A stretch of 64,000 nt of DNA from Halocafeteria seosinensis (lineage: Eukaryota; Sar; Bigyra; Bicosoecida), in assembly GCA_001687465.1 (NCBI GenBank), contig LVLI01000175.1, positions 1-64,000 of the forward strand, given 5' to 3'. The notes beneath the pieces are model-generated. The model saw nothing but the letters and a program-made list of their open reading frames with translations, was not told where the DNA came from and did not search any database. A program made the position numbers and the translations under genes. Positions 26,701 to 64,000 of this stretch are shown here, one piece after another (positions within the stretch are counted from its first letter, which is position 1; each line of letters opens with the position of its first letter).

Positions 26701-29700
26701 TCAAAGTATCCACATCTACGGGCGCTTTGATATGCTCACAAACCTCTGTTAACCAGCGGACGGTTTCAGGTTTGGCACGTTTGCACTCCCCTGACAAAAC
26801 CGCGCCCTTCAGCAAAGTTGCTAGCAAACTGTTAGAGGCATGGTACCACCAAAGCATGTTATCGGATAGGGACGTCGACTCGTAGCGGCGGAAAAAAGTA
26901 GTTAACAACTCTTGTGCCGACTGAAGGTGTCCATTGGCGGTGAGAACGAATGAAAGAAGGCGGACATCAAGCTCTCTGAACGACAGACCGCAATCAAACA
27001 TAAGCTCTTGAGCCTCCAACACGCGGGACCCAATGTCGCCTGTGGTATTGATTCTTCCCAAGTTCGAAATGCACTCGAAGGAAGGGTTCGCTAGCGAGTA
27101 AAGCAGCAGCGTTGCGCATTCCGCACTAGGCCTGGTATTGTCAGAATTTTCTGACCAGAAGCCGAACGCTTCCTGAGCGTTTCCGTTGAGAATCATTTGT
27201 AGAAGGTGCTCAGTTGACTCTAGCGAGCCGTTTTCAACTAGGATGTGAGGATCACTAGACATGTCTTTGACCATTGTCAAAATGTTTTCGGGTATAGAGG
27301 AGGCGGAATTGGGGTACATCCCTTTGAAGACTTGAAGAACCGGGCGAAATAAATCATCTGGCGACTGTTTGTCTCTTCCGAGCACTAATAGGTATGGCAT
27401 TGTTTTCGACGAGTATATATCGGTTTCCCACTCGTGTTCCCCCCTTTGCTTCCTGATAGAATTCCATACCCTCTCAAACAGTGAGGATTTATTTTCGGGG
27501 TCCATAATGCGTGCGCATGCAAGAGCTCCACTTAAGTCACAAATTTCGCTTTGAAGAGTCGCTTCCAAGGACGTGAACGCAATTTGTTGAATGTCTGCAA
27601 AGTGAAATTCTTCACTTTCGTAAGCTTCTGCCAGAAGCAATTTACCTGTAGCAAACCGTTGAAGCAACCTGCACTCTACATCAACAGCCGCGCTGGACAA
27701 GCGTAACCCTTGCATCGCATTTTCGTAACTACCAGCACTCCCCACAAGTTCAATCGACACAAAAAGGGCCCAAAAGAACAACGTACTGCAATTCAGAACG
27801 GTAGCCTGTTGAGAGGCCAAGTATTTGATACACTGAGATAGCACATCGTCGGCTGAATCCGGTTGCGGATTAAACCCTGCTGCTTCGGCATCCAACCGAA
27901 GAAGCAGCAGCCAATACAGCGCAACCTTGTCAGGTCTACCTTCAAGAGCATAAGTTGCCAGAAGTGTACAAAGTATTTTGCCGTCCGAAAGCAAATCCTT
28001 TAGTGTGTTCGACTCTGGTATCTGGATTTGTAGCTTCTTCAGCAAACCAACTACCCACCGGTGAGTAGTATGACCGCGACCTTCCCGGGAACAGGTTGCA
28101 ATATATCCCGCAACCAATGCCGTGGGAGGAAGGCGGTGCTGCTCAACATAGTGCTTCACCATGTCTTCTGTTACAGGTTTCCCGTCAAAAGCGTCGGGGA
28201 AATCGTCTAAATTGACGCCGACATCCGAATCCAAGGAATTTTCAGTCGCAAAGCTCTCGGTGGAGCCTCTTTTAAGAAGCTGACTGTACCTCCTAAGGGT
28301 GCCAGTGTCCATATCATCGCTGTTCCCATTTGACTCATTAGAACGTAGCCTAATTTTTTGGACTGCGCTCCTCAACGTGCCTACATCATCGCATGTTGCA
28401 GCAACTTCTGATACAGCCTTGTTGTGAGAAATTCTCGTAAGATTCTTGTACATGCAGTGCATGCCCTCTACTTTGCCTTTCAACGAAAATCTGGACAGCA
28501 AAGACCGATAAATGCCAGAAACGTTAGATCCCCCTCTAGAGGACTGCAGAAGCTCAAACATAGGGTTCGAGGATGAGTTGTCTTCCCGCAAAATGCCACA
28601 ATATATCCAGGCTACAACATTTGCAGTTGCGCGTTCCATTAACGACCATAGTTTATTCAGATGAACGCTCTGCTCTGCACTCTGCAGGAAAGCCTCAATG
28701 TCACCGTAAGACCACGTACCGGTTCTAGCCATACTGATGGTGCGATAAGTACGGCTGACGTGCACTGGGGCTGTGGGGATAGAATTTTCGATAAAGGATA
28801 GCACCCGTTCGGCCTCATCTTCCCTGCCTGCGTTAACAAAGGCTTGGGCCATTTTGCATCCAAGTTGACCCCTTAACCTAAACTGTTGAGCTGGTCTCTT
28901 TGTCAGAAATTTTAACAAACGTCTTAGATCACTCTGCACATAGGGGATGGCCGCATAACCGGACGATCCAATCTTAGCCAATTGCGTACAGGTTTGGCAT
29001 ATGTACTCCCAATCTTCCTTATCCATTCCATTATATATCTCCAAGACATTAGAAAACGTAGAAGCTACTGGTTGAATCTCAGAAGCAATGTATAGCGCCG
29101 TTATTTCAGCTAACAACTTTCGGTAGTCCCATCGACAACCGCAGTTCCACGCTGCATCCAGCAAAAAGGCGGAATCTTCCTCAAGTGCAGCTTCCAAAAC
29201 GATACCAGAAGAAACTTGTCCTTGTTTTCTGCGTCCAATACTTATATTATTCAAGTTCGGTGATGCCGTGAAGGAGCCAACAAGGAAATCTTGGACATGT
29301 TCTCTGAGCCTTTTCCTGCAATCAATTTCGTAACAATTACCTTGGTACATTACTTGCACCTGTGCTCCTGAAGACCGCTCGTTAAGAAAACGTTCGGCCA
29401 AACTCAGCGCACTCTTCTGAAGGACCTCGCCTTCCGAAGTGCTGGTCGCAATTAAACATGCATTCCAGAATGCATCTGTTCCAACGAGTAGCGAAAAAGC
29501 AGAGGAATGCTCCATCAGCGTCATCGCTTCCACGTGTCTACCCGCTCGAAGAAGGCCATCCAAAACGCAATACTGAAGCAATGACGCACCTTCTGTCTTT
29601 AATGGGGGCAAATGGTACATATCATCGGAACCGAAGCTCTTCAGGATATCGATATCGGAGTACAGAAGACAAGATTGGCTATGAGCTATCATCTGCAACG

Positions 29701-32700
29701 ACTGTGTCAACTCTGGAGCCTGCACAAACGCAGTAGACAGAGACAACAAAGTGCCACAGGAATCAAGAGACAGGCATTGAGACGCTGCATGCGCCAAATG
29801 GAGAAGTAATAACGCCTTCCAAACATTTGTTACCGCCAGGTCGCACTCTTGGCCGGATGATATCCTGTATGTTGTGAGATGGTCGGGAACATTGTCACGA
29901 CCGTGAAGCAACCAGCCTATGATCTCCGGAAGCTGTGAATCAGCTATTTGTGTCCCTTTGCTCAATTGTTCATGAGAAAGAAGTTCTTTCGCCCACAACA
30001 CTCGCGTTTTCCAGCCCTTTACTAACGAGTCTAAACCTGTTCGGGAGTCTGGCATTTCCATCGAGCTACAAGCGCAATAGAGAGCATCATGGAGAGCAAC
30101 CACAGCGAAAGGGTCGCCACAAGCGGCATAACATCGAAGTAGAATGAGAAAATACTCCAATCTTAATACTGACTTCTTCCGAATCATGCAAAGAATAATA
30201 TACTCCACCGCAAGAACAGCATTTTCAGGGATGTCGCAATTGGAAGCGGCAAGTATGAGCAGGAGAAATCGAAACTGGACAGTAACATCGCCATCAGGAT
30301 CATTGTTCTGCAGAGTACGTTGTTGAAAACATAATACTTGGTGAAGGTACCCATTCCGTGCCATTATCGTCATCATAGCTAGCTCTTGAGTAAAAAGATC
30401 TCCAAGGCGCACGTTATCACTTCCTACCTTCTTTTGGTATTCGTGACATATTCTCGTCGCTCTCCGAAATTGCCTACGTTTACCCACCGTGAGCATCATA
30501 ATAATCACTAAGAAACCAGCATCAGTGACCGTCGACCCGTCAAACATCGTAAGACTGGGACCTGTGTCTTTTATTGTAGTGACAGTAGACCGCCAGTAGT
30601 CCTCACAAGACCTTGCATCATTGATACGGTACCACATCTCTAGCTGAGGAACTTTCCATGTGGGAGAATCGGGCCGCACACTCGCAGTATTAGCAAGCAG
30701 TTGAAGGACCTCTGCACCCCGCTGTGCCACTTTGTCTTCCCTGTCTATCTCAAATATCAAGGCTTTGTCTGAGGATGCATCTCCAGCCTCCGTTGATTCC
30801 AAGCTGTCCTCGTCCACTCGTGGTAACGCTCCTCCCCGTTGTCCATGTTTGCCTCGACTCTTAATGACGCCATCAGAATGTAGCGTTTGGAATTTGCGAA
30901 TTGTGTCCGACGCAGATGCAATCGGACTAGCGTCAGGTTGTGACAGTCGCCTACTTTCTTCGGCGGCGCTCTGCGTCATCGTCTTTTTAGCTGTAGGCAC
31001 CAGTCTTGATTTCGACTTAACAACTTTTTTCTTTTTCCCAGTTTCTTTGCTTGTGCTTCCTGGCTTGGAGTTCGCAACACTCATCTCAGTCGCAACCTGC
31101 TGGGGCGTGTCCTGCTGAGCCTCCAATCGAGGAGCACCTTCATCACTGCCTTGCTGTGTCTCATTCTCTCGAAGCTGCTTATCGTCATTTTCCTTCGTGC
31201 TACCTTCTTCTTCGTCACAGACGTCATCATCTCCGAATAGTTGTAAGTCAATCATCAAACGTTCCAGTACGTGCTGTAGTTTTCTTAGCCGTTTCTTGAG
31301 ATACATGGCGCTTGTAATAGAAACGACCCATGACAGAACGGCATCTGATGCTTTGTTTGGGGACCGCAGATCCTGCACGAGTCGCTTCATTGATGCGTTA
31401 TCTTCAGTTTGATACAGAAAGTCGATGGGTAATTCTTGCGAACCGATCATGTTGCCATCCACAGCGAACTCGTATCGCCTACTTTCAGTAAAAACAGTGA
31501 ATTTGTTAGAGTCATCAGGGTTGATCTCCACCTTTGATACCTCTCCCAAATCAATCTTACCCTTGGGAGCCTCTCCCGTCTTCATATATTCATCCGAACC
31601 AAAATATAATAGACAGCCATTAACTGAGGGAACAGTTGGTTTCCACATTCTATTCGAGTCTTGTTTACCCTGCAACGAGACCAACCACCGTGCAGCTTCT
31701 TTCAGTGTTAGACCAGGAGTCAATCCAGGCACTGGGAAGGGGAATCCATTCAATCGCAGCTCCATATACCGCAGATTCCAGTGTTGAATGGTCTTTCCAC
31801 CCTTTTTGAGGACGTATCCGACCCGGACTCTGGTTGAGGATCTCTTCGGCGGAGTCATTGAGCATAGCGACGACAAGGTATGGCGATCAACAGGTTCGAG
31901 GGCCGCGTCAGACATTAGTTTCTGTACTAGGGTCAAAGAGCATTCACTCGTAAGCAGTCTAACATCAAAATCCGCAACGCCAAATGGACTCTTTTGTCCT
32001 CCCAAGTCTGATTTTGTTCTACCTAGCTTTCTTTGACTCCTCTTACTACTTGAGTCATCGGAATAAGACTTTCTAAAACTGCGAGAACGACCAATCATTC
32101 TATGAGGTGACTCACTGCCTTCTGTTCCGGCTTCAGCAGTTTCTGCAGGCTGAGATTGAGCAGAGGAAGCATCTGCAGCCAAGCTTCTCATTTTATCGCA
32201 CCACCTACTCAGTAGTGATCGATCTCGGGATCGCAGTACTAAGACGGTTTTCGTTAAACCCGGGGAAGGTTTAGGAGACGAGCCGCCTTTGCTAGCAACA
32301 GAAACAGAGCCTGAGTGTCGACTCCCATCATCGGATTCCGCCTCCGATGCACTGCCACCGATGTCCTCCTGTGTTTGCACAATGTCCAGCATGAGGCGCT
32401 GCATTAGAGGCGTAGTAAGCTTGGCCGGGAACCGAACAGCTAAAAGCTCCTTGTCCATACTAAAATTGATTTGCAATTCCTTGCATATCGGGATGATTCC
32501 CACTAGTATCCAGGTCTTTTCCTCTTCATTTGAGTTGTCAGTAGTTTTCTGTTTCTTTTTCGATCCAGTGCTGGCCCCAGAGGGTTCCTGGACGGGTTTC
32601 AGTACAAGCAAGACATCGGGACAAAGGAGAGCACGGACTAAGGAATCTTGCTCATTCATTTCGCTATCAGGATTCTTGATCGCTGATGGACGGTTGTCGT

Positions 32701-33557
32701 CTTCAATATCCACTCGCTGGTCACGCAACCGAAACTTGGAGTAAATGGACAGAGTATCTGCTGGGAGTGAAAATGCTCCATCGTCTACCACGTATCTTTC
32801 TTGGGATACCAAACTCACGTTCTCGCGCGAAGGTGTACATACGCATTGTTCCCAGTCCAACAGTAACCCTTTGCGTTCTTCAGAAACCCAGGCGTCCTTG
32901 ATTTGACTCTGAATTTCTCTCAGTGTTGTAATGACGCTGTCGACTTCCTCGTAGTCCGCAGGATCTCTGTCTGTTTCCATCAGAGATTTAGCATTTTCAC
33001 ACGCTTTGCAGAAGGCTTCCACATGGTCAAGAGGCAATCTCAATATATGACCCAGCGCTCCTTCTTCCGGAGAGTTTTCGTTCTCCGTAGGGGAACTGCG
33101 TCCATCGGCGCGCCCTTGGTTGTTCAGTATCTTTTTCACCTTCTGCCTAAATTTTTTGTCCTTCAGTAAGTGCTTGAATTGCCTCTGAAAATAATAGTGA
33201 GCGCTGACCCATTCTGTATATCTCATGCGAATACTCTCCAGTGAAGAACCGAGGATAGCCGGTATCTGTTCGATATCAATTTGCTTCGCTTCTTCGAACT
33301 CTGTTCGCAGCTTGATAAACAAGGAAACCAAGCTTTGGAGTCTCATATCCAGGGAAGTGAACACGTCGTGAGCTATGTTAAGCTCCTTGAGAGGCCTAAC
33401 ATAATGCTTAAGATACCGTTCAAGCTGTCGTGTATACGAGTTGTGGTAGCTCTGCAACGCTCAAAGAACGATATTCAATCACCGCCGACTACCCACATTC
33501 ATCATACAGACCGTAACCACTTACAATGAGCTCCTCGAGCGCGTCCTGATACCCCAT
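23783..33557 (-). CDS. Giant Dbl-type RhoGEF (DH-PH-PH) with helical repeats and coiled coil, about 3233 aa
   Basis: Two exons: 33557-33525 (MGYQDALEELI) and a single 9.7-kb exon 33451-23783, with a 73-bp intron. Residues ~1-210 look like a DH domain: ALEELISYHNSYTRQLERYL and YVRPLKEL match the CR1 pattern. A later ILRLPLDHVEAFCKA...DPADYEEVDSVITTL resembles the CR3 helix, and a low-complexity insert precedes it. A first PH-like domain (about 270-430) has LVRALLCPDVLLVLKP and a closing SLLSRWCDKMRSLA. A second PH domain (about 540-720) starts RVGYVLKKGGKTIQHWNLRYMEL and carries an insert. Residues ~950-2150 form a long alpha-helical region resembling TPR/PPR-like repeats. The C-terminal ~500 residues include long coiled coils. 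DH-PH proteins catalyse GDP/GTP exchange on Rho GTPases. Activity here is inferred, since the DH is divergent. Exon 1 was chosen because it completes helix 1 in phase. Confidence 0.7.
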
Positions 33558-50079: not shown

Positions 50080-52062
50080 TCAAAAGTCTTCCAGGAAACC
50101 AGGCAATTGAAATGATGCCATGCTGCCTACAGGAAGTATTAACAAATTCTGTCGGGCGGGATCCAACTGTTTCCAACGAGGTTTCCCTTTGTGCACTCTA
50201 TTGCTACAAGTCGAATGGTTGCTTGGCAGCTGACCATCCGGATCTAGCTGTTTCCATGGAGGCTTTCCCTCTGGCGTACAGCTATTGCTAGAAGCATCGG
50301 CTCGACTGCCTTGAACTCGAGTGGGCTCGGTTGGCGCTGATTCCTCAGTAGCAGATTCTGAGTTCGAGTTAGCACTAGCGGAAGCACCTTGACCAATTCC
50401 TTGTAACCATTTTTCCATCTCCTCTAGCGACGAGGACGTTGAAGGCCCAGCGGACTGTAAACCTGTTCCCTTTCCGTCGCCAAACACAGAGGTAGCAAGC
50501 GAAACTACGGACTCCTCTCCAGATTCGCAAATGCACTCTGTTTTGCTGTTTGCTGTTGTATCGGTAGTATGATGAAGCGAGTCATCTCGGAAGATAGCAT
50601 TCCACTGGTCTATAGAAATCCAATTTGTAGCTCCATCTACAAAACACACTAGTGGTTCGATGTATTGTACACCAGAATTTATACAATGGTGAGAGTTAAA
50701 TTCGAATGCCTCTTTGTGAGACACATTCTCATTCATGAATTCTTGTTCCCGAGAGTTCCATGACTTTTTACCCAGCAAGTTAGTCGTCTTGTGAGGGTTG
50801 TTCACTCGAGGAATACATGCGTAGGCGGGGTTCCATAGCGACATCCATTGCCTAGATAGAAGAAAGTGCAGCCAGCGCCTCAAGAAATAGAACCTTCTTG
50901 TAGAGGAGAAGTAAGACGTCATAGTACTGCAGAAGTACTTCTCTTGATGCTTGAATTTCTCATGCATGGTATCGAACAGACGCCATTCGTGAGCAAAACG
51001 TTCCAATATTCCCCTAAGAAGGTTTGGGATAAACGATGGAATTCTGCTTTGAATATCGTAAATAACAGCAAGCCAACATCGCAGCAGTTGGGTGAAACCA
51101 GTGCTATCTGCACTTATCTTCAGTAGAGTGGTCGAAGGTACGAGAGGACTATCAAATGTCCAACAGGGAGGCACTGACGGAGAAGAAAGCGTAGTTCCAA
51201 GGTCATCCGGTTTTTGAGGACGTCCGTCCAAAAGCATCGGGATCAGGACTCCACCGATTACCGTGTCTGGGCAATAACTCAAGCGGTCATACATCTTGTC
51301 CAGCAGCTGGCGTTCATCTGAGGCGGAAGCGAAAGGCGAGATAGAGTTACTAATGCTCTTTACTAGCTCTTCTATTTTCGATCCATCAGCATCACTTAGG
51401 ACTTTCAATCTTATGGTTGCAAGATCGCTCAAAATATCAGCCAGTATTTTTGACTGAGATATGTTCTCGAGCCGTCGGTATTGCGGTATCCAATAGTTGG
51501 TGAATAGCCAGTCAATAGCCCAAGAACGAGCATACAGTAGTGTTTCTATGGACGGCAACTGTGTGTGAGTTGCTTCATGTCGAAGATCCACAAGTACCCG
51601 TGGAATGCCCAGTTTCTTTGCAATTCCATTGACTGACATCGCTTTCGCTTTCGTTTGCAGGGGGTCAATTAGCCCATTGACCATCCGAACGATGGCCATA
51701 GAAGTAGCCAGACGGTCTTCCAAGACCGTTCTTGCTCTACTACCGCCCTGTTGCAGTTGCTGGGGGAAGTCATGATGTAGGCCACAAGACAATATATGAG
51801 CTGTGGAAGTCACCGCCACTGGAACTTTCCCTCGAGTTTCCCACGCCGCAATTCTATCCAATGCCCACTGTTTCGAATCCAGTTCTGCCGCACAAAGCGC
51901 CCGGTACACACTGCACCATTCTCCCCACGAGACCCATGGCACGTAGGGAGGCACATCCACGGCAGGTTCCTTCCGGTACGAGGCCGACGCTGACGCTGAC
52001 GCTGCCGACTGTGTCCCTCCGTCTCCTTCACGATGGCGTTTCCTGGAGCCTTTCTGGTTCAT
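50080..52062 (-). CDS. LAS1L: LAS1-like pre-rRNA endoribonuclease
   Basis: LAS1 is a HEPN-type nuclease that cuts the ITS2 spacer of pre-rRNA. It works with the polynucleotide kinase GRC3 in the nucleolus. Single exon, 660 aa. After a low-complexity Ser/Ala start, the conserved LAS1 domain (about 40-200) reads VSWGEWCSVYRALCA, AAWETRGKVPVAVTSTAHIL, MAIVRMVNGLIDPLQTKAKA, IAKKLGIPRVLVDLRHEATH and LPSIETLLYARSWAIDWL. The RHEATH motif is the R-x4-H active site of the HEPN fold. The central part is helical. The C-terminus ends with WKQLDP...LPVGSM, which recalls the short LAS1 C-terminal motif that engages GRC3. It also contains a 27-residue in-frame duplication around the GKPxWKQLDP element, at 50159-50300. 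Confidence 0.9.
   Translation of the reverse strand: MNQKGSRKRHREGDGGTQSAASASASASYRKEPAVDVPPYVPWVSWGEWCSVYRALCAAELDSKQWALDRIAAWETRGKVPVAVTSTAHILSCGLHHDFPQQLQQGGSRARTVLEDRLATSMAIVRMVNGLIDPLQTKAKAMSVNGIAKKLGIPRVLVDLRHEATHTQLPSIETLLYARSWAIDWLFTNYWIPQYRRLENISQSKILADILSDLATIRLKVLSDADGSKIEELVKSISNSISPFASASDERQLLDKMYDRLSYCPDTVIGGVLIPMLLDGRPQKPDDLGTTLSSPSVPPCWTFDSPLVPSTTLLKISADSTGFTQLLRCWLAVIYDIQSRIPSFIPNLLRGILERFAHEWRLFDTMHEKFKHQEKYFCSTMTSYFSSTRRFYFLRRWLHFLLSRQWMSLWNPAYACIPRVNNPHKTTNLLGKKSWNSREQEFMNENVSHKEAFEFNSHHCINSGVQYIEPLVCFVDGATNWISIDQWNAIFRDDSLHHTTDTTANSKTECICESGEESVVSLATSVFGDGKGTGLQSAGPSTSSSLEEMEKWLQGIGQGASASANSNSESATEESAPTEPTRVQGSRADASSNSCTPEGKPPWKQLDPDGQLPSNHSTCSNRVHKGKPRWKQLDPARQNLLILPVGSMASFQLPGFLEDF
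50150..50305 (-). repeat. 81-bp in-frame direct duplication in LAS1 C-terminus
   Basis: Two copies with an 81-bp offset (for example the ggatcc at 50159 and ggatct at 50240) encode GKPPWKQLDPDGQ and GKPRWKQLDPARQ. Similarity extends on both sides (ctattgctacaag versus ctattgctagaag). Because 81 is divisible by three, the duplication added 27 residues without a frame change. Confidence 0.7.
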
Positions 52063-53453: not shown

Positions 53454-54272
53454 CTAAAAATCCTGAAAGTGCCTCATTACGCGCTCAATAGATATTGATG
53501 CCGTATCCGATCGCAGCCGCAAGAATGCCATAATGGTCCAGCCTTTCACACGGGTAGGATTTTCTAATCGACCCTGTCTGAGGCCATCTGCTATCGATAT
53601 TTTGCCGTTCACTTTACGTGTATACAAAAAGGGATTACGCGAGTAGTAGTGATCAGAACGGCCGAGATGTTCAGATATGATTTCTTTCACCTTGTTCAAA
53701 GCGTCCAGGAAGTCGAATTCTTGCTCTAAGAACTCAGTCGCGCGATGGTCATGAGCACGGGTTTGCGCCTCGTTCCGTAGATGCGCCTCCACCATTTCCT
53801 CCACTTGTCTCCCAATTCTCCGCGCAATAGTGTCTTCCTCAACATCCGCTTGTGATTGAGGGCTCTCATACTCGGTGAGCTTCTTGTCCACCCACGAGTA
53901 GATTTCTCCCCGTAAGTTGTTGTTGGGAAACTGCGCTCCCGGATTCAGAAGTACGGAATTCGTTGCAGGTGATCTATTGGACTGTTGTAGCCAGCGATTG
54001 ATAGCTGATCTCTCATATGTGTACCCATCTCCAATGACGGTAGGTTCAGTCATGATGGTTTGTGTGATGGGACAAATGAACGACGGCGAGCACTCAGCTT
54101 CCACGTCCGCTCCGTGTCGACTTCGTAGCTTTTGAATCTTATCCTCTAGCCTCTCCCTGACACCTGTATTCACGGACGACGAACGAGGAGGAGGCCGGGT
54201 ACCTCCTCTCTGAGACGTAGACGCATTATTTCCCATCCCTTGTAGCAGGATGTTGGTGGTGGCGGATACCAC
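53454..54272 (-). CDS. U-box domain protein, probable E3 ubiquitin ligase (tandem copy 1)
   Basis: Single exon. The U-box (about residues 60-135) reads SPSFICPITQTIMTEPTVIG, DGYTYERSAINRWLQQSNRSP, then LRGEIYSWVDKK. U-boxes are RING-like folds that recruit E2 enzymes without zinc. The first frame Met is at 54272, but the second, at 54236, gives MGNNASTS, an N-myristoylation consensus (Gly 2, Ser 6). If used, the protein is 260 aa and membrane-tethered. A helical middle is Glu/Arg-rich. The last ~75 residues (RKVNGKISIADGLRQG...MAFLRLRSDTASISIERVMRH, in part) match the end of the neighbouring U-box gene and form an unnamed shared domain. The pair is tandem on the same strand, so it arose by gene duplication. 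Substrate is unknown. Confidence 0.8.
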   Translation of the reverse strand: MVSATTNILLQGMGNNASTSQRGGTRPPPRSSSVNTGVRERLEDKIQKLRSRHGADVEAECSPSFICPITQTIMTEPTVIGDGYTYERSAINRWLQQSNRSPATNSVLLNPGAQFPNNNLRGEIYSWVDKKLTEYESPQSQADVEEDTIARRIGRQVEEMVEAHLRNEAQTRAHDHRATEFLEQEFDFLDALNKVKEIISEHLGRSDHYYSRNPFLYTRKVNGKISIADGLRQGRLENPTRVKGWTIMAFLRLRSDTASISIERVMRHFQDF

Positions 54273-54790: not shown

Positions 54791-55495
54791 CTAAGCAGAG
54801 GGAGTTACGTGACGCAGCATCGCCCTGATGGTGATTCCACGGGTGTCTGGACGTGCACGCAGGAATTGCAAGATTCTCCTTCCTTCTATCTGTTCACATT
54901 TAGGGTCCCCTTGAAGGAGTCCTTCCATTATAGAAATTTTGTTGGCCCACTTCCTTGAAATACGCATAGGATCTATAGCATATCGGTGAGACGTCCCACC
55001 GTACACTTGGTCAATCAAGGTCTTCACCGATGGGGCGGCAGTGTTAATATCAAAATACTGATTCTCAAAGTCATATACTCTATCTTCGAAGCGTCTGCTG
55101 TCATTGTGGGAACAGCCTTGACACTCCCACTGCAGTTGTAGAAGTTCTTCCTGCAGTCGCCGCACATGTACCTGTAACCCCGATCCTACGAAAGTTCCAC
55201 ATTGATATTCTTTCAGTCGTTGTTCTACCCATGTAAATATTTCTCCACGCAATGCGTGATTGTAGATTTTGTGTGTTGTGGGTAGCTGCTCACCAGTCAT
55301 CGGTGAAGTACGTGACGATGCCAGCCAACGCTCTATTTCCTCCTGCTGGTAGTTGTGACCATCTTCCAAGAGAACAGGATCAGACATTAACGTGAGAGAA
55401 ATCGGGCAAACGAACCTCTGATCGCATTCTTCATCAACGTTGCACCCTCTCTCTTTAAGTTCTTCTACCTTCCTATCCAAATTCTTGTTATCCAT
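54791..55495 (-). CDS. U-box domain protein, probable E3 ubiquitin ligase (tandem copy 2)
   Basis: Single exon, 234 aa. A short N-terminal coiled coil (LDRKVEELKERGCNVDEE) leads into the U-box at about residues 25-95: DQRFVCPISLTLMSDPVLLE, DGHNYQQEEIERWLASS, then LRGEIFTWVEQRLKEY. The middle is helical (VRRLQEELLQLQWECQG). The C-terminal ~75 residues contain RKWANKISIMEGLLQGDPK and ILQFLRARPDTRGITIRAMLRH, aligning with copy 1 (RKVNGKISIADGLRQG; MAFLRLRSDTASISIERVMRH). It lacks the myristoylation signal of copy 1, so the two proteins may act in different places. Identity between copies is moderate outside these blocks, indicating an old duplication. The role as an E3 is inferred from the U-box. 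Confidence 0.8.
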   Translation of the reverse strand: MDNKNLDRKVEELKERGCNVDEECDQRFVCPISLTLMSDPVLLEDGHNYQQEEIERWLASSRTSPMTGEQLPTTHKIYNHALRGEIFTWVEQRLKEYQCGTFVGSGLQVHVRRLQEELLQLQWECQGCSHNDSRRFEDRVYDFENQYFDINTAAPSVKTLIDQVYGGTSHRYAIDPMRISRKWANKISIMEGLLQGDPKCEQIEGRRILQFLRARPDTRGITIRAMLRHVTPSA

Positions 55496-55811: not shown

Positions 55812-58800
55812 TCAATACTGCGCATCGACTATATACCTCCCCGCGAGTTCTGGAGATTGGACAGGATCCACTTTCATTTCGTGGCCAAAACTCTCCGAGA
55901 GAACTTTTCGTACATAGAAATCATAATATTCATTGGGTAAAGTACTGAGAAGTTTGGAGGCTTCTTTACTCCGTTCTTCTGCTTCAGTAACCGGTAGCGG
56001 ATCTGCATTTCCATAGAGGTCCTTCGAATTGCGCAGCTCATCGGGTAAAATATTGTCTTTCCAGAATACATTGACAGCAATGCTCGTTCCAGATACACTT
56101 GTTACGCTATGGCACCACAAAGATGGGATAAATAATACATCTCCTTCTCTCATCAAAAACTCCACGGCATTCTTGCGGGCATAAGGTGCCAATGGAAACT
56201 GAGAAGTATCGATGAAATCCCAGTTCAATACCTTGGAGGAGGAGCCTTTCAGATACAAGCAGTCCGAAACAGAAGGGGGAAATAAGATAACCCTTTTCTT
56301 GCCGTGAAGCTGTACAAGCACATTGTCCATGACGTCATAGTGAGTCCACAGCGTCATACCCGGAGACGCAACACGGAAAACTGAGGAAAAATATGCGCCT
56401 GAAGGAACAAGCCACTTTAGTTTTTGAAACGGTAAACTTCGTGAGAGGTCGGGGAAGTCTTTCCAGAAGTGGGCCCTAGTTCTTCGAGGGTTGTCACCAA
56501 CTGCCCGTAGATAAATGCTTCCAGTATCTTGCTTAGTGTTCTCACATCGCTGCAGCAATTCCTGGAAAGTCATATTCTGAAAGCAGAAGTTCTTGTCAGT
56601 GAAGTCCATTCTAGCATTGGCCGAAACATGAGCGCTCACGCGGGTCTCCCCACTCTTGTCACCCCTTGCTAGCAAATTACAAGGACGAAATGCCTCCACA
56701 ATGTCACTACTGATTGCAGTCTGCAACAGAAGCGGCCTTCGCCTCGCCCATAGGACATACTGCACGGTGTGTTCGTTAAGTAAGTCGAGTGAGGGAGAGC
56801 AAAGAGATGTTGCCGAAGCAATGTCACCAGCTCTAAAGCCCGATGTCCGAGACAGATCGCTGCGCACAATTTCTTCAATCTGTTTTGTGGTTTGTTCAAG
56901 AGTTGACATTGCTGGGAAGCAATGAATGTCTGCCACACAATGTAAAATGTTTGGTGCATAGCTTTTCACCCTAACAATACTGTGGCATGATACTGTCCAT
57001 CGCTTTCCAAAGTTACTGGATAACCGTTGAATCTCATCACGCACATATTGACCCCATTTGTCCTTTCTGGCTTCTTTCTTATTAATATTTCCATGAACAT
57101 GCATCCAACCTCCCCGCTCTTTCATCACCTGAACTGCAACAGACCAAGCGTCTTCACTACTTGGCAGCAAACCGAGATTGACACGATCAGCCACGTTCGG
57201 TATTCTTGGGGCGAGCTCCTGGTTATCGCAAAGATATAGCGAGACTCTGTCTTCCACACCGTTCAAGCGCACGTTCTTTTCCAAGCAATTCATTGCAGCG
57301 GGATTGATATCACAAGCATGTACATGTGCTACCTTTGCATGAATAAGGTAAGGGATGGTAAAATAACCTATGCCCGCATACAGATCGACCACTGTTTCTC
57401 CTTCAGCTGGAAACGAAGCAACTCGTGCTTTCTCTGTGTCATTCCCCGTGCTGAACATTACTTTAGTAATATCAAGTGTGTATAGTATCCCATTTTCCTT
57501 GATCGTTACCCAAGGGTCATCTCCAAAGAGCAGTTCAACTCTTGAGTCCCGCGTACAACTTTGCGCGATTTCCGACCGCCGCGTAACTATTCGTGCGTTT
57601 GCAAGCTGTGCTAGGTCTTGCCAAATTCGTGGTACCAATTGGCTATCTCCAAGCTGTATCTTCGGTTGTTCCCAAAGAGGATCAACCAGTGAGTGCGGTG
57701 ATAACATCAAAGCGTCTGAACAAAACTCTAGTTTGTTTGGTATATCCGTTTCTAGCCGTATCGGAAGTCTATATTGTTGCATGAACTCCTTCAGATATAC
57801 TTGAACTCGTTCTAATAGCGATTGTCTCCGAGGCTGTTTATGTGTTTCGCCACATCGAGCGGTGCCGGCTTGGATAAGCAGCGGCGAAGTTGCAAGGTCT
57901 TCCAGGTGTTCTATTACAGTATCAAAATTTCCGTCGATTGACAATAGTTTTTGGCGATGTTGTGAAAGCGCGCCAGTAAGTTCACCCCGATACGGTACAC
58001 GTAAGAATTGGGAGCTTTGGAACCACGAAACAGCCGGAATACTTATTGGCTTCAATTTTTTAGGCTTTTTATCTGTATCGCTGCGATTGGATAAGTGCCT
58101 AAGCAGCGTAAGCGGGATACGAGTCAATTGTTCAATGAAGCCTTTTGCTGAGCAAAACATGTGGTCGCTTCTTCGAAGTGCTGCTAAAATCTTCTCAGAT
58201 TCCTGAGGACTGCATGCATGCATTTTCCTCTTCAGATCAAGGATACCAATGAATTTGAAGAGTTCGGAGCAATGCATTGCAGCTTGTTTCGGAACGATCA
58301 CCCACGATTCGGATGCTTCAGCTATGTTTCCGTTACTGGACTGAGTGCCAGGGTTGGTCGGGACGAGAGAGGTTGCTTCTTGTTGACCAGGCTTCTCAGC
58401 TATAGGGCAATACGAGTACAGAAGACTGCGAAACAGGGAAATTTCATCCCCCTTCTCCACCTCCGGTATGTCGCGCGATCTCTGGGTATCCAGTGCCTTT
58501 TCTCCTTGTGCAGAAATAGGGATCCACATCAAGATGTCAATGTCATCCGGCAAACCCGAGTCTGAATATCTTTTCCTCTGATCTTTTTTCTCCTTTCTTC
58601 GCAACGATTTCCCTGGAAGAGAATTCTTTAACGATTTGGACATATCTACGATCGGCAGTTGCGAAGCGATACTATTAAGCCTCAAGAAACTGTCATACGT
58701 TCGTTTATCCAAAAGTGTTCGAGCTCGACCATACCTGCGGATTTTCTCTGTTTGATCCAGAAGCCCATCTTTCGCCAAGATAACTTTCGCTGGTTCCGTA

Positions 58801-60899
58801 GCTTGTATCGGAACAACTAACCCTTTTCTGGATGCACAGAGTTCCAAACCAAGCTTCTCCGTGTTTTGTCGTGATTCGGCCAATCCTTCGCTAGCACTTA
58901 AGGATAAAAGCCGTCTACAACAGAAAGACTCTAGGTCTAAAGCTAAGGGAGGGCAGTAAAATGCCCCGAAAGAAAACGTCAAACCACCCCCACCAACTGT
59001 GACTAGCTGAAAGGATGAGTTACCACCACCATGACTGAAGGTGCTGCAACCGCTCCTGCTCAGATAGGAAAGCGCCCGTTTCGTCTCACTTTTCACCATT
59101 TCACTCTGGTTCGACGGGACAAAACTAATGCGTCTACATCGCCAACTGCCAACTTCCATTTTGTACGGGCCCTGTTCGGCAGAGTTCGCTGTTGTTCCCC
59201 CAAATATCAGTAGAGATCTCGGCTTCCCACCGCCAATCGGAATGATGTGATGGAAAAATCGAGGAGAAGGATTTGCATCCGTTAACGGTGGGGTGGACCA
59301 CGTTAAACTGGGTACGTGCAATTCAAAGAAGTCACCAAGAAGTCTGCCGGAAAGGTGCTTATCCGAAGCAATATTGCGATTTTGTGTGCCTCGTTCTCGT
59401 GAAATGTTATCAGGACGAGCAAATGTGTATCCTCCATGGACATATACACTATCATGTCCTGTGCACATTGCATGACCATAACGAGGACCAGGCATTACAC
59501 CGGAACAGTTTCTGGCCAAATTCGCGACTGAAAATGTGGATTGACCGTGCAAATTATTGAAGAATGTGATCTTCAGTAGGGAAGCAAAACAATGGTCGGT
59601 GTTTCTACCGCCAAAGAGAACGATTTCTTTCTCGCTGATCGGTACCATTTGATGACCCCAGCAGCACGGTAAATGGGTATCGGCTTCGTGTGGTTTGCTC
59701 ATAGGATGCCATTCATGAACGTAACCATTATCAAGCTTCTCAACAGTCAAACTCCACAGATCCCCGAGAGCATTTGAAGGAGAAGTCCGGCCTCCGTGTA
59801 TGACAAGTTGTTCCCCATCCGTGGCGGGAAGCACACACGCAGCATGTTTTATGCGAGCGGCAGGTAATTGATCTCTTGAGCGGCAAGCGCTATATGTCCA
59901 TTCTTCTTTGGAGGGGTCAAATATCACAACAGAGGTTAGTCTCTGCATATTCGATCCACCACATCCACCGTATAAAACTCCGATTTCCTTTCCATCGCGC
60001 AGCTTGAGGCGACTGAACGAGAGTCCCCAGCGAGCTAGATCACGTGGATCCACTTGGCATTGTCCTGGAGGCAGAGTTTTGTCTACCACATCTGTGTCCA
60101 TCAAATTTTCCCTTAAATTCCTTTCGAACAACGTGACTTTTCTCAAATTTTGGTTGAAGCGGTTATTCGCATACTCCACTAATAGCCGAAAGGATGCCCG
60201 TGGCACGATGTGGTTCCCATTCAACACGAGAGGAACTTGCATCGTATTAGCCGTCGATCGTACATGCACCATAAACTTCTTACCAATGACGATCCCCGAC
60301 TCCCTGAACCCAGATTGGTTCGCTATGTTCAACAGTCTCTTGGCTGAAGCTATATCCCTGCATTGAACGTGGAGAATAAACGGTTCCACTTTGAGAAGCA
60401 AACGACTGCAATCCGTTGAACATCCTTGCACCAATTCGATCACTTCGTCAGGAGATACTGTCCTATGTGCCGCAAGAAGCCACTGTCCACTACCCTTATA
60501 CGAATATTGCTTTCCAGAGTATTCCGCCGTACTCGTACTGGGGTGGTCTTCACAGTCTTCGCTGCCTTTTTCATTCGGGTCAGCGGCAGCAAGGCCTCCC
60601 TCTTCTTCCTCGTCTGTCAAGTTCCTACAGGACTGGTCAGATGGTCTGCCGTTCGTCGTAGAGGGCTGAGGGATATAAAATAAGGAAATACGGCCTGAGC
60701 AAGAACTCGTGCTGACATAGTCCGGAAGTGTATTCAGCCATTCCAGGAACCCTTTGATGGGCGCATCAAGGGCGCCTTTCGGAGATTTATCCACTAGGTT
60801 CTGAAGATCTCGTAGAATCTGAGTTTTGCAAGCATCAAAGGCTTCATGCTCCTGTGTATGGGCCAAACGCACCATGTCGGTGAGAGTCACACACACCAC
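55812..60899 (-). CDS. TYW2/3/5: Four-module wybutosine synthesis enzyme: TYW3-Kelch-TYW2-TYW5
   Basis: One 5.1-kb exon, 1695 aa. Wybutosine is the tricyclic base at position 37 of tRNA-Phe. Residues ~10-265 are TYW3, the N4-methyltransferase: KSPKGALDAPIKGFLEWLN and TSSCSGRIS (64-70), later SGFRESGI. Residues ~285-650 are Kelch repeats (VLYGGCGGSNMQRL, VIHGGRTSPSNALGDLWSL), as in plant TYW2/3 fusions and the C-terminal half of TYW4. Residues ~880-1330 are TYW2, which adds the aminocarboxypropyl group from SAM: VVDLYAGIGYFTIPYL (~1170), HACDINPAAMNCLEKNVRLNG, GGWMHVHGNINKKE. Residues ~1400-1690 are TYW5, the JmjC hydroxylase: TLWTHYDVMDNVLVQLHGKK with the HxD pair, YLYLKGSSSKVLNWDF-type segment, DVLFIPSLWCHSV with the distal His, VNVFWKD, LPNEYYDFYVRKV. 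All expected metal and SAM motifs are present. TYW1 and the TYW4 methyltransferase are not here. Confidence 0.93.
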   Translation of the reverse strand: MVCVTLTDMVRLAHTQEHEAFDACKTQILRDLQNLVDKSPKGALDAPIKGFLEWLNTLPDYVSTSSCSGRISLFYIPQPSTTNGRPSDQSCRNLTDEEEEGGLAAADPNEKGSEDCEDHPSTSTAEYSGKQYSYKGSGQWLLAAHRTVSPDEVIELVQGCSTDCSRLLLKVEPFILHVQCRDIASAKRLLNIANQSGFRESGIVIGKKFMVHVRSTANTMQVPLVLNGNHIVPRASFRLLVEYANNRFNQNLRKVTLFERNLRENLMDTDVVDKTLPPGQCQVDPRDLARWGLSFSRLKLRDGKEIGVLYGGCGGSNMQRLTSVVIFDPSKEEWTYSACRSRDQLPAARIKHAACVLPATDGEQLVIHGGRTSPSNALGDLWSLTVEKLDNGYVHEWHPMSKPHEADTHLPCCWGHQMVPISEKEIVLFGGRNTDHCFASLLKITFFNNLHGQSTFSVANLARNCSGVMPGPRYGHAMCTGHDSVYVHGGYTFARPDNISRERGTQNRNIASDKHLSGRLLGDFFELHVPSLTWSTPPLTDANPSPRFFHHIIPIGGGKPRSLLIFGGTTANSAEQGPYKMEVGSWRCRRISFVPSNQSEMVKSETKRALSYLSRSGCSTFSHGGGNSSFQLVTVGGGGLTFSFGAFYCPPLALDLESFCCRRLLSLSASEGLAESRQNTEKLGLELCASRKGLVVPIQATEPAKVILAKDGLLDQTEKIRRYGRARTLLDKRTYDSFLRLNSIASQLPIVDMSKSLKNSLPGKSLRRKEKKDQRKRYSDSGLPDDIDILMWIPISAQGEKALDTQRSRDIPEVEKGDEISLFRSLLYSYCPIAEKPGQQEATSLVPTNPGTQSSNGNIAEASESWVIVPKQAAMHCSELFKFIGILDLKRKMHACSPQESEKILAALRRSDHMFCSAKGFIEQLTRIPLTLLRHLSNRSDTDKKPKKLKPISIPAVSWFQSSQFLRVPYRGELTGALSQHRQKLLSIDGNFDTVIEHLEDLATSPLLIQAGTARCGETHKQPRRQSLLERVQVYLKEFMQQYRLPIRLETDIPNKLEFCSDALMLSPHSLVDPLWEQPKIQLGDSQLVPRIWQDLAQLANARIVTRRSEIAQSCTRDSRVELLFGDDPWVTIKENGILYTLDITKVMFSTGNDTEKARVASFPAEGETVVDLYAGIGYFTIPYLIHAKVAHVHACDINPAAMNCLEKNVRLNGVEDRVSLYLCDNQELAPRIPNVADRVNLGLLPSSEDAWSVAVQVMKERGGWMHVHGNINKKEARKDKWGQYVRDEIQRLSSNFGKRWTVSCHSIVRVKSYAPNILHCVADIHCFPAMSTLEQTTKQIEEIVRSDLSRTSGFRAGDIASATSLCSPSLDLLNEHTVQYVLWARRRPLLLQTAISSDIVEAFRPCNLLARGDKSGETRVSAHVSANARMDFTDKNFCFQNMTFQELLQRCENTKQDTGSIYLRAVGDNPRRTRAHFWKDFPDLSRSLPFQKLKWLVPSGAYFSSVFRVASPGMTLWTHYDVMDNVLVQLHGKKRVILFPPSVSDCLYLKGSSSKVLNWDFIDTSQFPLAPYARKNAVEFLMREGDVLFIPSLWCHSVTSVSGTSIAVNVFWKDNILPDELRNSKDLYGNADPLPVTEAEERSKEASKLLSTLPNEYYDFYVRKVLSESFGHEMKVDPVQSPELAGRYIVDAQY

Positions 60900-61735: not shown

Positions 61736-64000
61736 TTACATGAGCGGGTGGTAATCAAGTGGCCGCTCCAACGCTCGGGGCTCGTCCTCTTGGGGGAACT
61801 GGAAGAAGTTTAGGGTGTCCACCACTTCGTCCATGGATGGACGCTCTTCGGGGTTTTCATGCCAACAGCGTGTGATCAACTGGCGAAGACCAACTGGAAG
61901 CGCTTTGGGGAGATCTAATCTTTCACCATGTAATACCTTTTCCCTGATTTCTTCATTTTCCTGTAAGTAAGAGGAGTGATGAAAACGGTGCATTCTGGGT
62001 GTCGTTACTCCCCAAACAACTTACTACACCAGCCCATGGCTCTTCCCCACTGAATAGCTCGTATAGGAGTACCCCGAACGCGAACACATCCGATCGAGCA
62101 TCGTAACCTTGCTTCCTAATGGCTTCAGGAGCTAGCCATGCACTGGGACAAACCGTTTTCCCACTATCGTCGTTAGTGTCCAAAGTTTGAGCCAAATTAA
62201 AATCGGCAACACGGGCGTGCCACGTAGTTTCGTCTGCACAGATTAACAGATCTATCGAGGCTAGGTCGATCACAACGTATTCTTACGGGGTAGTGGCGTA
62301 CCTTCAATCAAGATGTTCCGGGCGGCAACGTCGTGGTGGATTATCTCGCAAGAGTGAAGATGGCGGATTCCCTCGGCAGCTTGGATAGCAATATGCAGAA
62401 TCGTTTTCGATTTAAGGGGCTCACTCCTCTTCGAGAGCAACTTGTTGACAGGACCCTGAGGACACAATTGAGTCACCAACGCTGGTTGCTCATCCTCGTC
62501 GGTAACGCCCAAAAATTTAACAATATTCGCTGAAGAAAACCACACGGAAGAGCATTACACCAGCGACTGTAAATCCGACAACCATAGGCAAAACTTACGA
62601 TGTTCGCAAGCTCGTGCCATTATTTCAGCTTCGCGAAGTATGCTCTTCAATGAAGCACTCCGAACCTGCGTCAAGCGAAATGATAGTGCAAGTACACACG
62701 AAAAAAACCCAAGCAGCCGCAACTTACCTCTTCCGACACTCCCAAACCAGTGGCATCGGTGGAATCTTCAGTCTGTAGCAGGATATCGACTGAAGGATTA
62801 CGAAACCAGTGGGTGGCACTACATAGTTGCCGCTTACGTACCACTCTAAACTTAATGGCCACCGATGTATCATCATTAAACAAACCCTTCCAGACCGTAG
62901 AAAAGTTGCCTCCGTCTAGAGGTTTCTGATATTTTACATTTCTCAACCGAGGGATGGCATCATTGTTAGAATCAGAAGCATCAGAGGGGAGCGATTCTTC
63001 TTGATGAAAACCAGTTTCCTCAAACACTTCACCAGTACCTTGTTGTTCCTTTCGAAGAGAGTCATTCTCCCTATATTCTACATTCCGCCCCGCCTCCGTT
63101 GGGGCCATGTTACTAGGATTCGTAATAGAGGTACTTGTTTCCTCTTTGGCAGCATAAGAGGGGTAGCCCCCGACTGAAACACTGTCATCGGTAGTTTGTA
63201 CGTAATTATTATCGGACAGTGCTGTGTGTTCAGAATTCGCCTTTCCAGTTTCCGTTCTAATGCTTGGAGCACTGGCTGTTGACGGGTGTATTGACTGAGA
63301 AATTCTCTGTTCCGTCGAGCTGCAGCCAGCTGTCTGCTCCTCTTGCTCAACAGCTGGGGTTCTAATATCCTCGCTTCCGCTTACGGTATCGCCGTCGTGC
63401 TCGTCTGGAAATAATGAGTTCAAAGGACACGAGTTCTCTTGAGCAGTATCGAAAACTGCTTCCGCCGTGGACTCTCGTGGAGCATACGACGTACCAGTTT
63501 GCATGGGCGATGTCTCTGAGACGCTATCAGGTTGGTTATGTGGCTGCTCCGAGGAAAGGATTTCAGTGCCATTGTTCTCTGATGCTGCATCACGGTCATG
63601 CGGGCTACCAGCGGATGTCCCTAATCCTTCGACGTCTTCACAACTACCTTCAGAAGATACATGTGGACTTCCTTTTGCCTGAGGATCTGCTTCCCTTATT
63701 ACTTCTTCTGTCTCGCATGGAGTCGAGGTACCTTCCTCTAGAGTCTCACGAGCGGATGGGTGATCAGTTTCACTACTTGTAGCTGTTCGTTCGTTCTGGT
63801 CATTCGTTTTGCTCGGTTGGCTTTTACTTGTATTTTGTTTCTTATCTTTTCCTTTCCCCTTTCCATTGCCTTTTTTCCCTTTTTTCTGGCGCCCGCCACT
63901 GGCGAAGAAACTAGCAACACCTCCGATTAGAGCAACACCTGCCCCCACCGCAGCATACGCTAGAGCATCATGCGACGACGATGATTTCTTTGGAGCAGGA
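61736..64000 (-). CDS. TKL-like protein kinase, N-terminus cut by the window end
   Basis: Six exons are visible: from the window edge to 62842, then 62772-62728, 62665-62599, 62529-62302, 62251-62025 and 61960-61736. Introns are 51-69 bp. A hydrophobic helix (DALAYAAVGAGVALIGGVASFF) lies near the N-terminus, followed by a Lys/Gly-rich stop-transfer segment and ~270 residues of Ser/Thr/Glu-rich disorder. The kinase domain starts YQKPLDGGNFSTVWKG (Gly loop) and VAIKF (ATP lysine). It continues ILREAEIMARACEHPNIVKF (helix C Glu), IIHHDVAARNIL (catalytic loop), ARVADFNLAQ, WLAPEAIRKQGYDARSDVFAFGVLLYEL and LITRCWHENPEERPSMDEVV. The catalytic Asp and Asn are kept, but HRD is HHD and DFG is DFN. A membrane-anchored signalling kinase of the TKL/LISK type is likely. 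Substrates are unknown. Confidence 0.85.

What the first reader, a model, noticed from the sequence alone, without database searches (positions are those of the whole stretch)
55812..60899. TYW3-Kelch-TYW2-TYW5 fusion: wybutosine maturation and hydroxylation in one protein
Seen in sequence: one uninterrupted frame holds TYW3 (TSSCSGR), Kelch repeats, TYW2 (DLYAGIGYFTIPYL) and a JmjC domain with the TYW5 signature WTHYDVMDN and the distal LWCHSV. Established: plants fuse TYW3, Kelch and TYW2, while TYW5 is a separate protein in animals. I know of no described protein joining all four. Inference: the intermediate base could pass between active sites, and the organism probably makes hydroxywybutosine.
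Basis: partly seen in the sequence, partly recalled or inferred. Interest (0 to 1): 0.9.

Follow-up and report, generated by a model that had tools for sequence, protein, structure and literature searches.

The report
Four-part tRNA-Phe base-37 modification enzyme
One gene of an unidentified eukaryote joins three enzymes that build the wybutosine base of phenylalanine tRNA, plus a Kelch domain, in a single protein; each part is known, but we found no description of all of them in one chain.

Summary
It carries, in order, TYW3, a Kelch propeller, TYW2 and a JmjC domain that is TYW5-like: human TYW5 is the best solved match (E 5.5e-62), far ahead of FIH (3.2e-11), and the TYW5 residues H160, D162 and H235 are conserved. 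No second TYW3, TYW2 or TYW5 gene was found in the 30.6 Mb draft genome; TRM5 and TYW1 are separate, and TYW1 starts 3.8 kb away on the same contig. The chain would thus cover three consecutive steps after TYW1: imG-14 to yW-86, yW-72, then hydroxylated yW-72. No TYW4 gene was found; the single LCM gene is LCMT1-like. So the predicted end product is undermodified hydroxywybutosine (OHyW*) rather than full hydroxywybutosine. Partial precedents exist: plants (TYW3+Kelch+TYW2) and trypanosomes/Aspergillus (TYW4+TYW5-like JmjC). The protein database was switched off, so how widespread the fusion is remains unknown. Verdict: real, a new variant of a known kind.

The parts
55812..60875 (-). Whole coding frame of the TYW3-Kelch-TYW2-TYW5 fusion, 1687 aa plus stop (ATG start; the frame extends to a GTG at 60899)
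60111..60827 (-). TYW3 domain (SAM-dependent N4 methylation, yW-86 to yW-72)
   Evidence: Pfam PF02676 E 2.4e-48; the one TYW3 match in the genome; archaeal TYW3 homologues in the PDB
59139..59978 (-). Kelch beta-propeller, possible counterpart of the TYW4 C-terminal part named in the plant fusion
   Evidence: Pfam PF24681 E 8.7e-29 and other Kelch models; nearest natural solved matches are LZTR1, a flagellar protein and KLHDC2; yeast TYW4 only at E 0.066
56913..57629 (-). TYW2 domain (aminocarboxypropyl transfer, imG-14 to yW-86)
   Evidence: Best PDB matches are archaeal TYW2 PH0793 and MJ1557; Taw2 model E 9.9e-36 against Trm5b 5.8e-24
56799..56912 (-). 38-codon linker between TYW2 and JmjC matches, no stop; contains an in-frame ATG at 56909
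55899..56798 (-). TYW5-like JmjC domain (Fe(II)/2-oxoglutarate hydroxylase)
   Evidence: Human TYW5 3al5 E 7.3e-61 over 300 aa in the whole protein, 5.5e-62 alone
56334..56342 (-). HYD: iron ligands H1512 and D1514, aligned with human TYW5 H160 and D162
   Evidence: alignment, positions; their role as iron ligands is recalled
56109..56111 (-). Distal iron ligand H1589, aligned with human TYW5 H235
   Evidence: alignment, positions; its role is recalled

Best explanation
A single multifunctional eukaryotic enzyme that performs three consecutive steps of wybutosine synthesis on G37 of tRNA-Phe: its TYW2 domain adds the aminocarboxypropyl group to imG-14, its TYW3 domain methylates N4 to give yW-72, and its C-terminal TYW5 domain hydroxylates yW-72 to undermodified hydroxywybutosine (OHyW*); the Kelch propeller probably helps to hold tRNA or the domains together. 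TRM5 and TYW1 act before it as separate proteins. Shown: one frame, four domain matches, conserved iron-site residues, no second copy found. Inferred: translation as one chain, all three activities, order of action. The stated confidence is for the three-activity single chain; that OHyW* is also the final product is a further inference, less certain (see the first rival).
For: Unbroken frame and domains. JmjC part: TYW5 best by a wide margin and iron-site residues kept. TYW2 part closer to TYW2/Taw2 than to Trm5. No second TYW3, TYW2 or TYW5 gene found in the genome, so if the pathway runs it probably uses this gene. TYW1 complete (flavodoxin, radical SAM, Wyosine_form), TRM5-like gene at C113, and a tRNA-Phe(GAA) gene with G at position 37. 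A TYW5-like extension on a wybutosine enzyme occurs in T. brucei, which makes OHyW (PMC4417183, passages). The one LCM locus found is LCMT1-like.
Against: No transcript or protein data. No NCBIfam model reaches its curated cut-off (for example Taw2 123.6 bits against 350), though the library is made for prokaryotes. The structure prediction of the JmjC part without an alignment was unusable (mean pLDDT 34). Absence of TYW4 rests on exon-by-exon searches of a draft assembly. One review attributes the step from yW-72 to OHyW* to 'the TYW4 and TYW5 enzymes' (PMC7694415, passages), which would make a genome without TYW4 a problem for it. The residue equivalent to human TYW2 E265 is D here (mapping by recalled human sequence). 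Codon-position GC is not even along the gene (third position 0.38 in the TYW2 stretch, 0.51 in the JmjC stretch).
Confidence: 0.8

Rival explanations
1. The organism does have TYW4 (missed as split exons or in an assembly gap), so the pathway ends at full hydroxywybutosine.
For: Searches are exon by exon without introns and the assembly has 605 contigs; TYW4 completes OHyW from the undermodified form (PMC4682802, passages).
Against: Three searches, two of them at E up to 10, found one LCM locus only; its 381-aa spliced product matches LCMT1 (222 bits) far better than yeast TYW4 (77.5 bits) and has no Kelch part.
Confidence: 0.3
2. The gene also or mainly yields a separate TYW5 from an internal start (ATG at 56909) or from cleavage of the precursor, so the working units are a plant-like TYW3-Kelch-TYW2 and a free TYW5.
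For: An in-frame ATG lies in the linker, just after the TYW2 match.
Against: No stop separates TYW2 from JmjC, so any message that starts at TYW3 and is not spliced or ended early must read into JmjC. Internal promoters were not searched for.
Confidence: 0.12
3. The JmjC part is not a TYW5 proper but the JmjC extension of TYW4-type fusions (as in T. brucei or A. oryzae) or another hydroxylase of the large Cupin_8/JmjC family, perhaps with another substrate.
For: T. brucei TYW4 carries a TYW5-like JmjC extension (PMC4417183, passages); Cupin_8 is broad, with 15 matches in this genome. No sequence of a TYW4-attached JmjC was on hand: yeast TYW4, the solved one, is an LCM and Kelch protein without it (recalled), so its absence from the matches is no test.
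Against: Human TYW5 matches at 5.5e-62 over 300 residues and the next molecule, FIH, at 3.2e-11, which speaks against an unrelated JmjC; the T. brucei extension is itself called TYW5-like and its owner makes OHyW, so this rival changes ancestry more than function.
Confidence: 0.1
4. Assembly artefact joining two genes.
For: Draft assembly of 605 contigs; no reads available; third-position GC differs between the TYW2 and JmjC stretches (0.38 and 0.51), though the N-terminal stretch (0.50) is like the JmjC one.
Against: No N in the span, exact frame continuity, and both parts belong to one pathway, as does the nearby TYW1.
Confidence: 0.03

Closest known systems
Plant TYW2/TYW3/Kelch fusion, Arabidopsis At4g04670 (listed as Tyw3+Tyw4c+Tyw2; PMC2956550, passages)
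   Same: Order TYW3, middle part named after the TYW4 C-terminus (a Kelch part, recalled), TYW2 in one chain
   Different: No TYW5-like JmjC domain is listed for it
Trypanosoma brucei TYW4 with TYW5-like JmjC extension (PMC4417183, passages; likened there to Aspergillus oryzae)
   Same: A TYW5-like JmjC fused to another wybutosine enzyme; the organism makes OHyW
   Different: Partner is TYW4, not TYW3-Kelch-TYW2; T. brucei TYW2 and TYW3 are listed as separate reading frames
Human TYW5 (C2orf60, PDB 3al5/3al6)
   Same: 300 aligned residues, E 7.3e-61, all three iron-site residues
   Different: Stand-alone protein; the crystal chain has 338 residues with its tag
Archaeal TYW2/Taw2 PH0793 and TYW3 family PH1069
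   Same: Catalytic domains match at 8.3e-30 (TYW2) and 3.1e-16 (TYW3)
   Different: Stand-alone proteins

Membership tests
TYW3 | Pfam TYW3 domain above cut-off with SSCSGR motif | tested here: met
   164.7 bits against 27; motif at residue 56; alignment with PH1069
TYW3 | Methylates yW-86 on tRNA | not testable with these tools
   needs enzyme assay
TYW2 | TRM5/TYW2 domain closer to TYW2 than to TRM5 | tested here: met
   Taw2 9.9e-36 against Trm5b 5.8e-24; top TYW2-part PDB matches PH0793, MJ1557; separate TRM5-like gene in the genome
TYW2 | Residues chosen for mutagenesis in human TYW2 (K225, Y242, F248, E265, D293; PMC3386263, section 14) | tested here: inconclusive
   K, Y, F and D are kept, E265 is D; mapping uses the human sequence as recalled, not from a call
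TYW2 and TYW3 (NCBIfam prokaryotic equivalogs) | Curated equivalog cut-off reached | tested here: not met
   Taw2 123.6 of 350 bits; Taw3 87 of 200 bits; the library is made for prokaryotes
TYW5 | JmjC domain nearest to TYW5 among solved structures and with the HxD...H iron site | tested here: met
TYW5 | Groups with free TYW5 rather than with TYW4-attached JmjC domains in a tree | not tested
TYW5 | Hydroxylates yW-72 in tRNA-Phe | not testable with these tools
   needs enzyme assay
Plant-type TYW3-Kelch-TYW2 fusion | Same domain order | tested here: met
   plant order from PMC2956550 (passages)
Plant-type TYW3-Kelch-TYW2 fusion | Ends after TYW2 | tested here: not met
   JmjC domain follows in frame
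TYW4 | LCM methyltransferase domain | tested here: not met
   no LCM match in the protein at E 0.001
TYW4 | Kelch part related to the TYW4 propeller | tested here: inconclusive
   yeast TYW4 only at E 0.066, behind LZTR1, KLHDC2 and others

The most novel reading that the evidence does not exclude
In this organism the wybutosine pathway after m1G37 is reduced to two linked genes, TYW1 and one TYW3-Kelch-TYW2-TYW5 protein, with TYW4 lost, so that the natural end product is OHyW* (hydroxylated yW-72 without methyl ester and methoxycarbonyl), made by one enzyme that holds the anticodon loop through three reactions.
Probability: 0.4. Interest if true: 0.65.

Novelty: new variant of a known kind. 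Interest (0 to 1): 0.5.

Why it matters
Gene fusion is strong evidence that TYW5 works directly with TYW2 and TYW3, and the protein offers a one-chain system to test whether successive tRNA modifications at one base are coupled. The combination with an apparently missing TYW4 makes a sharp, testable prediction (OHyW* as end product) and would separate the hydroxylation branch from the TYW4 steps.

Tried and rejected
By the full protein, genome contigs gave 9 pattern matches, none confirmed, and viral contigs none; by the JmjC part, viral contigs gave 5 matches, none confirmed; by the WTHYDVMDN DNA pattern, 0 in viral contigs and 0 in genome contigs. tblastn of the JmjC part found 21 plasmid records and 1 phage record, all below 60% identity and none with one place covering 80% of the query; of the five plasmid rows shown (25-39% identity) three are annotated as cupin-like. 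These collections are of viruses, prokaryotes, plasmids and phages, so they say nothing about how widespread the fusion is among eukaryotes.

Organism: not identified. The 18S Rfam search failed twice, a 16-base 18S pattern had 0 matches, and no light-harvesting (PF00504) match was found, which suggests a non-photosynthetic eukaryote. Window GC is 44-50%; the introns of the two genes that I spliced are 59-75 bases.

Rejected: chance frame; an unrelated JmjC; a second TYW2, TYW3 or TYW5 gene (one search also has a match below the cut-off on C390, 25.1 bits, not examined further). I also withdrew codon-position GC as support for one gene, since it is uneven. Retroposition suggested by the missing introns was dropped, because other long uninterrupted frames lie in the window (3224 aa and 1358 aa). 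The AlphaFold model of the JmjC part (pLDDT 34) was not used and no fold search was made. tRNA-Phe: 5 places matched the pattern with up to 2 mismatches (the backwards-pattern control gave 6, so the pattern alone means nothing); four of the five had loci, and ARAGORN finds a tRNA-Phe gene in one of those four.

Full report
What is there. The other five frames of the span hold 46 to 100 stops each, and the frame would arise by chance with a probability of about 3e-39 under the window's single-base composition.

Domains. In the numbering of the 1695-codon frame, Pfam finds TYW3 at 25-263 (2.4e-48), Kelch repeats at about 308-587 (8.7e-29 for the best model), the TRM5/TYW2 methyltransferase domain at 1133-1271 (3.2e-34) and Cupin_8/JmjC at 1385-1616 (1.4e-34). 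Against solved structures the TYW2 part matches best to archaeal TYW2 (PH0793, 8.3e-30; MJ1557, 5.4e-26), ahead of Trm5. NCBIfam gives the same order, Taw2 9.9e-36 before Trm5b 5.8e-24, but none of its listed models reaches its curated cut-off; the library is made for prokaryotes. The TYW3 part aligns with PH1069, including TSSCSGR.

The JmjC part is TYW5-like. Alone it matches human TYW5 at 5.5e-62 over 300 residues; the next molecule is FIH at 3.2e-11, out of 39 sequences at E up to 1. Residues H1512, D1514 and H1589 of the 1687-aa form align with human TYW5 H160, D162 and H235, taking off a 23-residue tag from the crystal chain (the tag length and that these are the published iron ligands are recalled; Kato et al. 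2011 is not held). What is not tested is whether this domain groups with free TYW5 or with the TYW5-like JmjC that other organisms carry on TYW4: no such sequence could be fetched, and yeast TYW4, the solved one, has no JmjC part (recalled). Between the TYW2 and JmjC matches lie 38 codons without a stop but with one ATG, so an internal start is possible, while a separate TYW2 product would need early termination, splicing or cleavage.

The Kelch part. Its nearest natural solved relatives are LZTR1, a flagellar protein and KLHDC2; yeast TYW4 appears only at E 0.066. That it derives from TYW4, as the listing of the plant protein implies, is therefore not shown here.

The rest of the pathway. The genome (G000, 30.6 Mb, 605 contigs) has one TYW3 match, in this gene; three TRM5/TYW2 matches, of which two are above the family's cut-off, this gene and a 502-aa TRM5-like frame on contig C113 with a TYW2_N_2 domain, and one is below it (C390, 25.1 bits; not examined); and no second copy of any part of the fusion, the next best of four matches to it being 29.2 bits. 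A complete TYW1 gene lies on the same contig at 64633-67666 (+), just past the window's end: spliced across nine short introns it gives 807 aa with flavodoxin, radical SAM and Wyosine_form domains. The two starts are 3758 bases apart; for one pair of genes placed at random this closeness has a probability of about 2.5e-4, before allowing for the fact that I noticed it afterwards. A gene that looks like a protein kinase by sight lies between them. One tRNA-Phe(GAA) gene with G at position 37 was found.

TYW4. LCM-domain searches found one locus only (at E 0.001, at E up to 10). Its spliced 381-aa product matches human LCMT1 at 222 bits and yeast TYW4 at 77.5 bits, and it ends without a Kelch part. 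A search of the genome with that protein at E up to 10 returned only its own exons, 7 of 7 matches. TYW4 is thus probably absent, with the reservation that searches go exon by exon in a draft assembly.

How it most likely works. After TRM5 and TYW1 have made imG-14, the TYW2 domain adds the aminocarboxypropyl group (yW-86), the TYW3 domain methylates N4 (yW-72; both steps as in PMC3386263, passages), and the TYW5 domain hydroxylates yW-72 (the substrate named in PMC4682802, passages). Without TYW4 the product stays at OHyW*, the undermodified hydroxywybutosine; TYW4 would be needed to add the methyl and methoxycarbonyl groups. The sources do not agree fully: PMC7694415 (passages) writes that OHyW* is made by the TYW4 and TYW5 enzymes, and PMC4417183 (passages) writes in its introduction that yW is further modified by TYW5, while its figure legend names yW-72 as the substrate. 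The modified base never leaves the tRNA, so coupling of the active sites would mean re-docking of one anticodon loop; nothing here tests that.

Compared with what is known. Arabidopsis At4g04670 is listed as Tyw3+Tyw4c+Tyw2 (PMC2956550, passages); wybutosine derivatives were not detected in that study. In Trypanosoma brucei an extension of TYW4 resembles TYW5, said to recall Aspergillus oryzae, and the organism makes OHyW (PMC4417183, passages). Nine literature searches listed no paper whose title or abstract start tells of a protein joining TYW2, TYW3 and TYW5; four of the listings were capped (20 of 46, 30 of 109, 15 of 7,044 and 10 of 92 papers). I saw passages of nine held papers and one section of one of them; the key papers on TYW5 and on wybutosine synthesis are not held. 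Whether sequence databases already contain many such proteins could not be tested. I expect that relatives of this organism share the architecture; that is a guess.

Verdict. It is a new variant of a known kind: two known fusion habits of the wybutosine pathway combined in one chain. On checking I lowered the main confidence from 0.83 to 0.8 and raised the JmjC-ancestry rival from 0.04 to 0.1, because yeast TYW4 was no valid control for it.

Noticed in passing
G000 contig C118:64633-67666 (+), just past the window end (locus L016:4633-7666): Complete TYW1 gene, 807 aa after splicing nine short introns, 3.8 kb start to start from the fusion gene: linked wybutosine genes in a eukaryote.
   Followed up: yes
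window about 61736-64000 and on to C118:64215 (-): Gene between the fusion and TYW1; later exons read like a protein kinase by sight (not tested with a profile), the long first exon has no Pfam match.
   Followed up: partly
C118 about 69424-70236 (-) (L016:9424-9900 and beyond): A second JmjC/Cupin_8 gene on the contig, resembling JMJD6 by sight (recalled), Pfam JmjC 7.5e-17.
   Followed up: partly
window 53454-54272 and 54791-55495 (-): Two neighbouring U-box frames next to the fusion gene.
   Followed up: no
window 50080-52062 (-): Las1-like frame, Pfam 3.3e-43.
   Followed up: no
window 23783-33457 (-): Single uninterrupted frame of 3224 aa, function not examined, in a genome where the two genes that I spliced have six and nine short introns.
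   Followed up: no
G000:C89 near 94778 (L032:1471-1546): tRNA-Phe(GAA) gene with an acceptor start TGCTGCC and T-arm GGATCGAAACC that look unusual beside the tRNA-Phe genes I recall; position 37 is G.
   Followed up: partly
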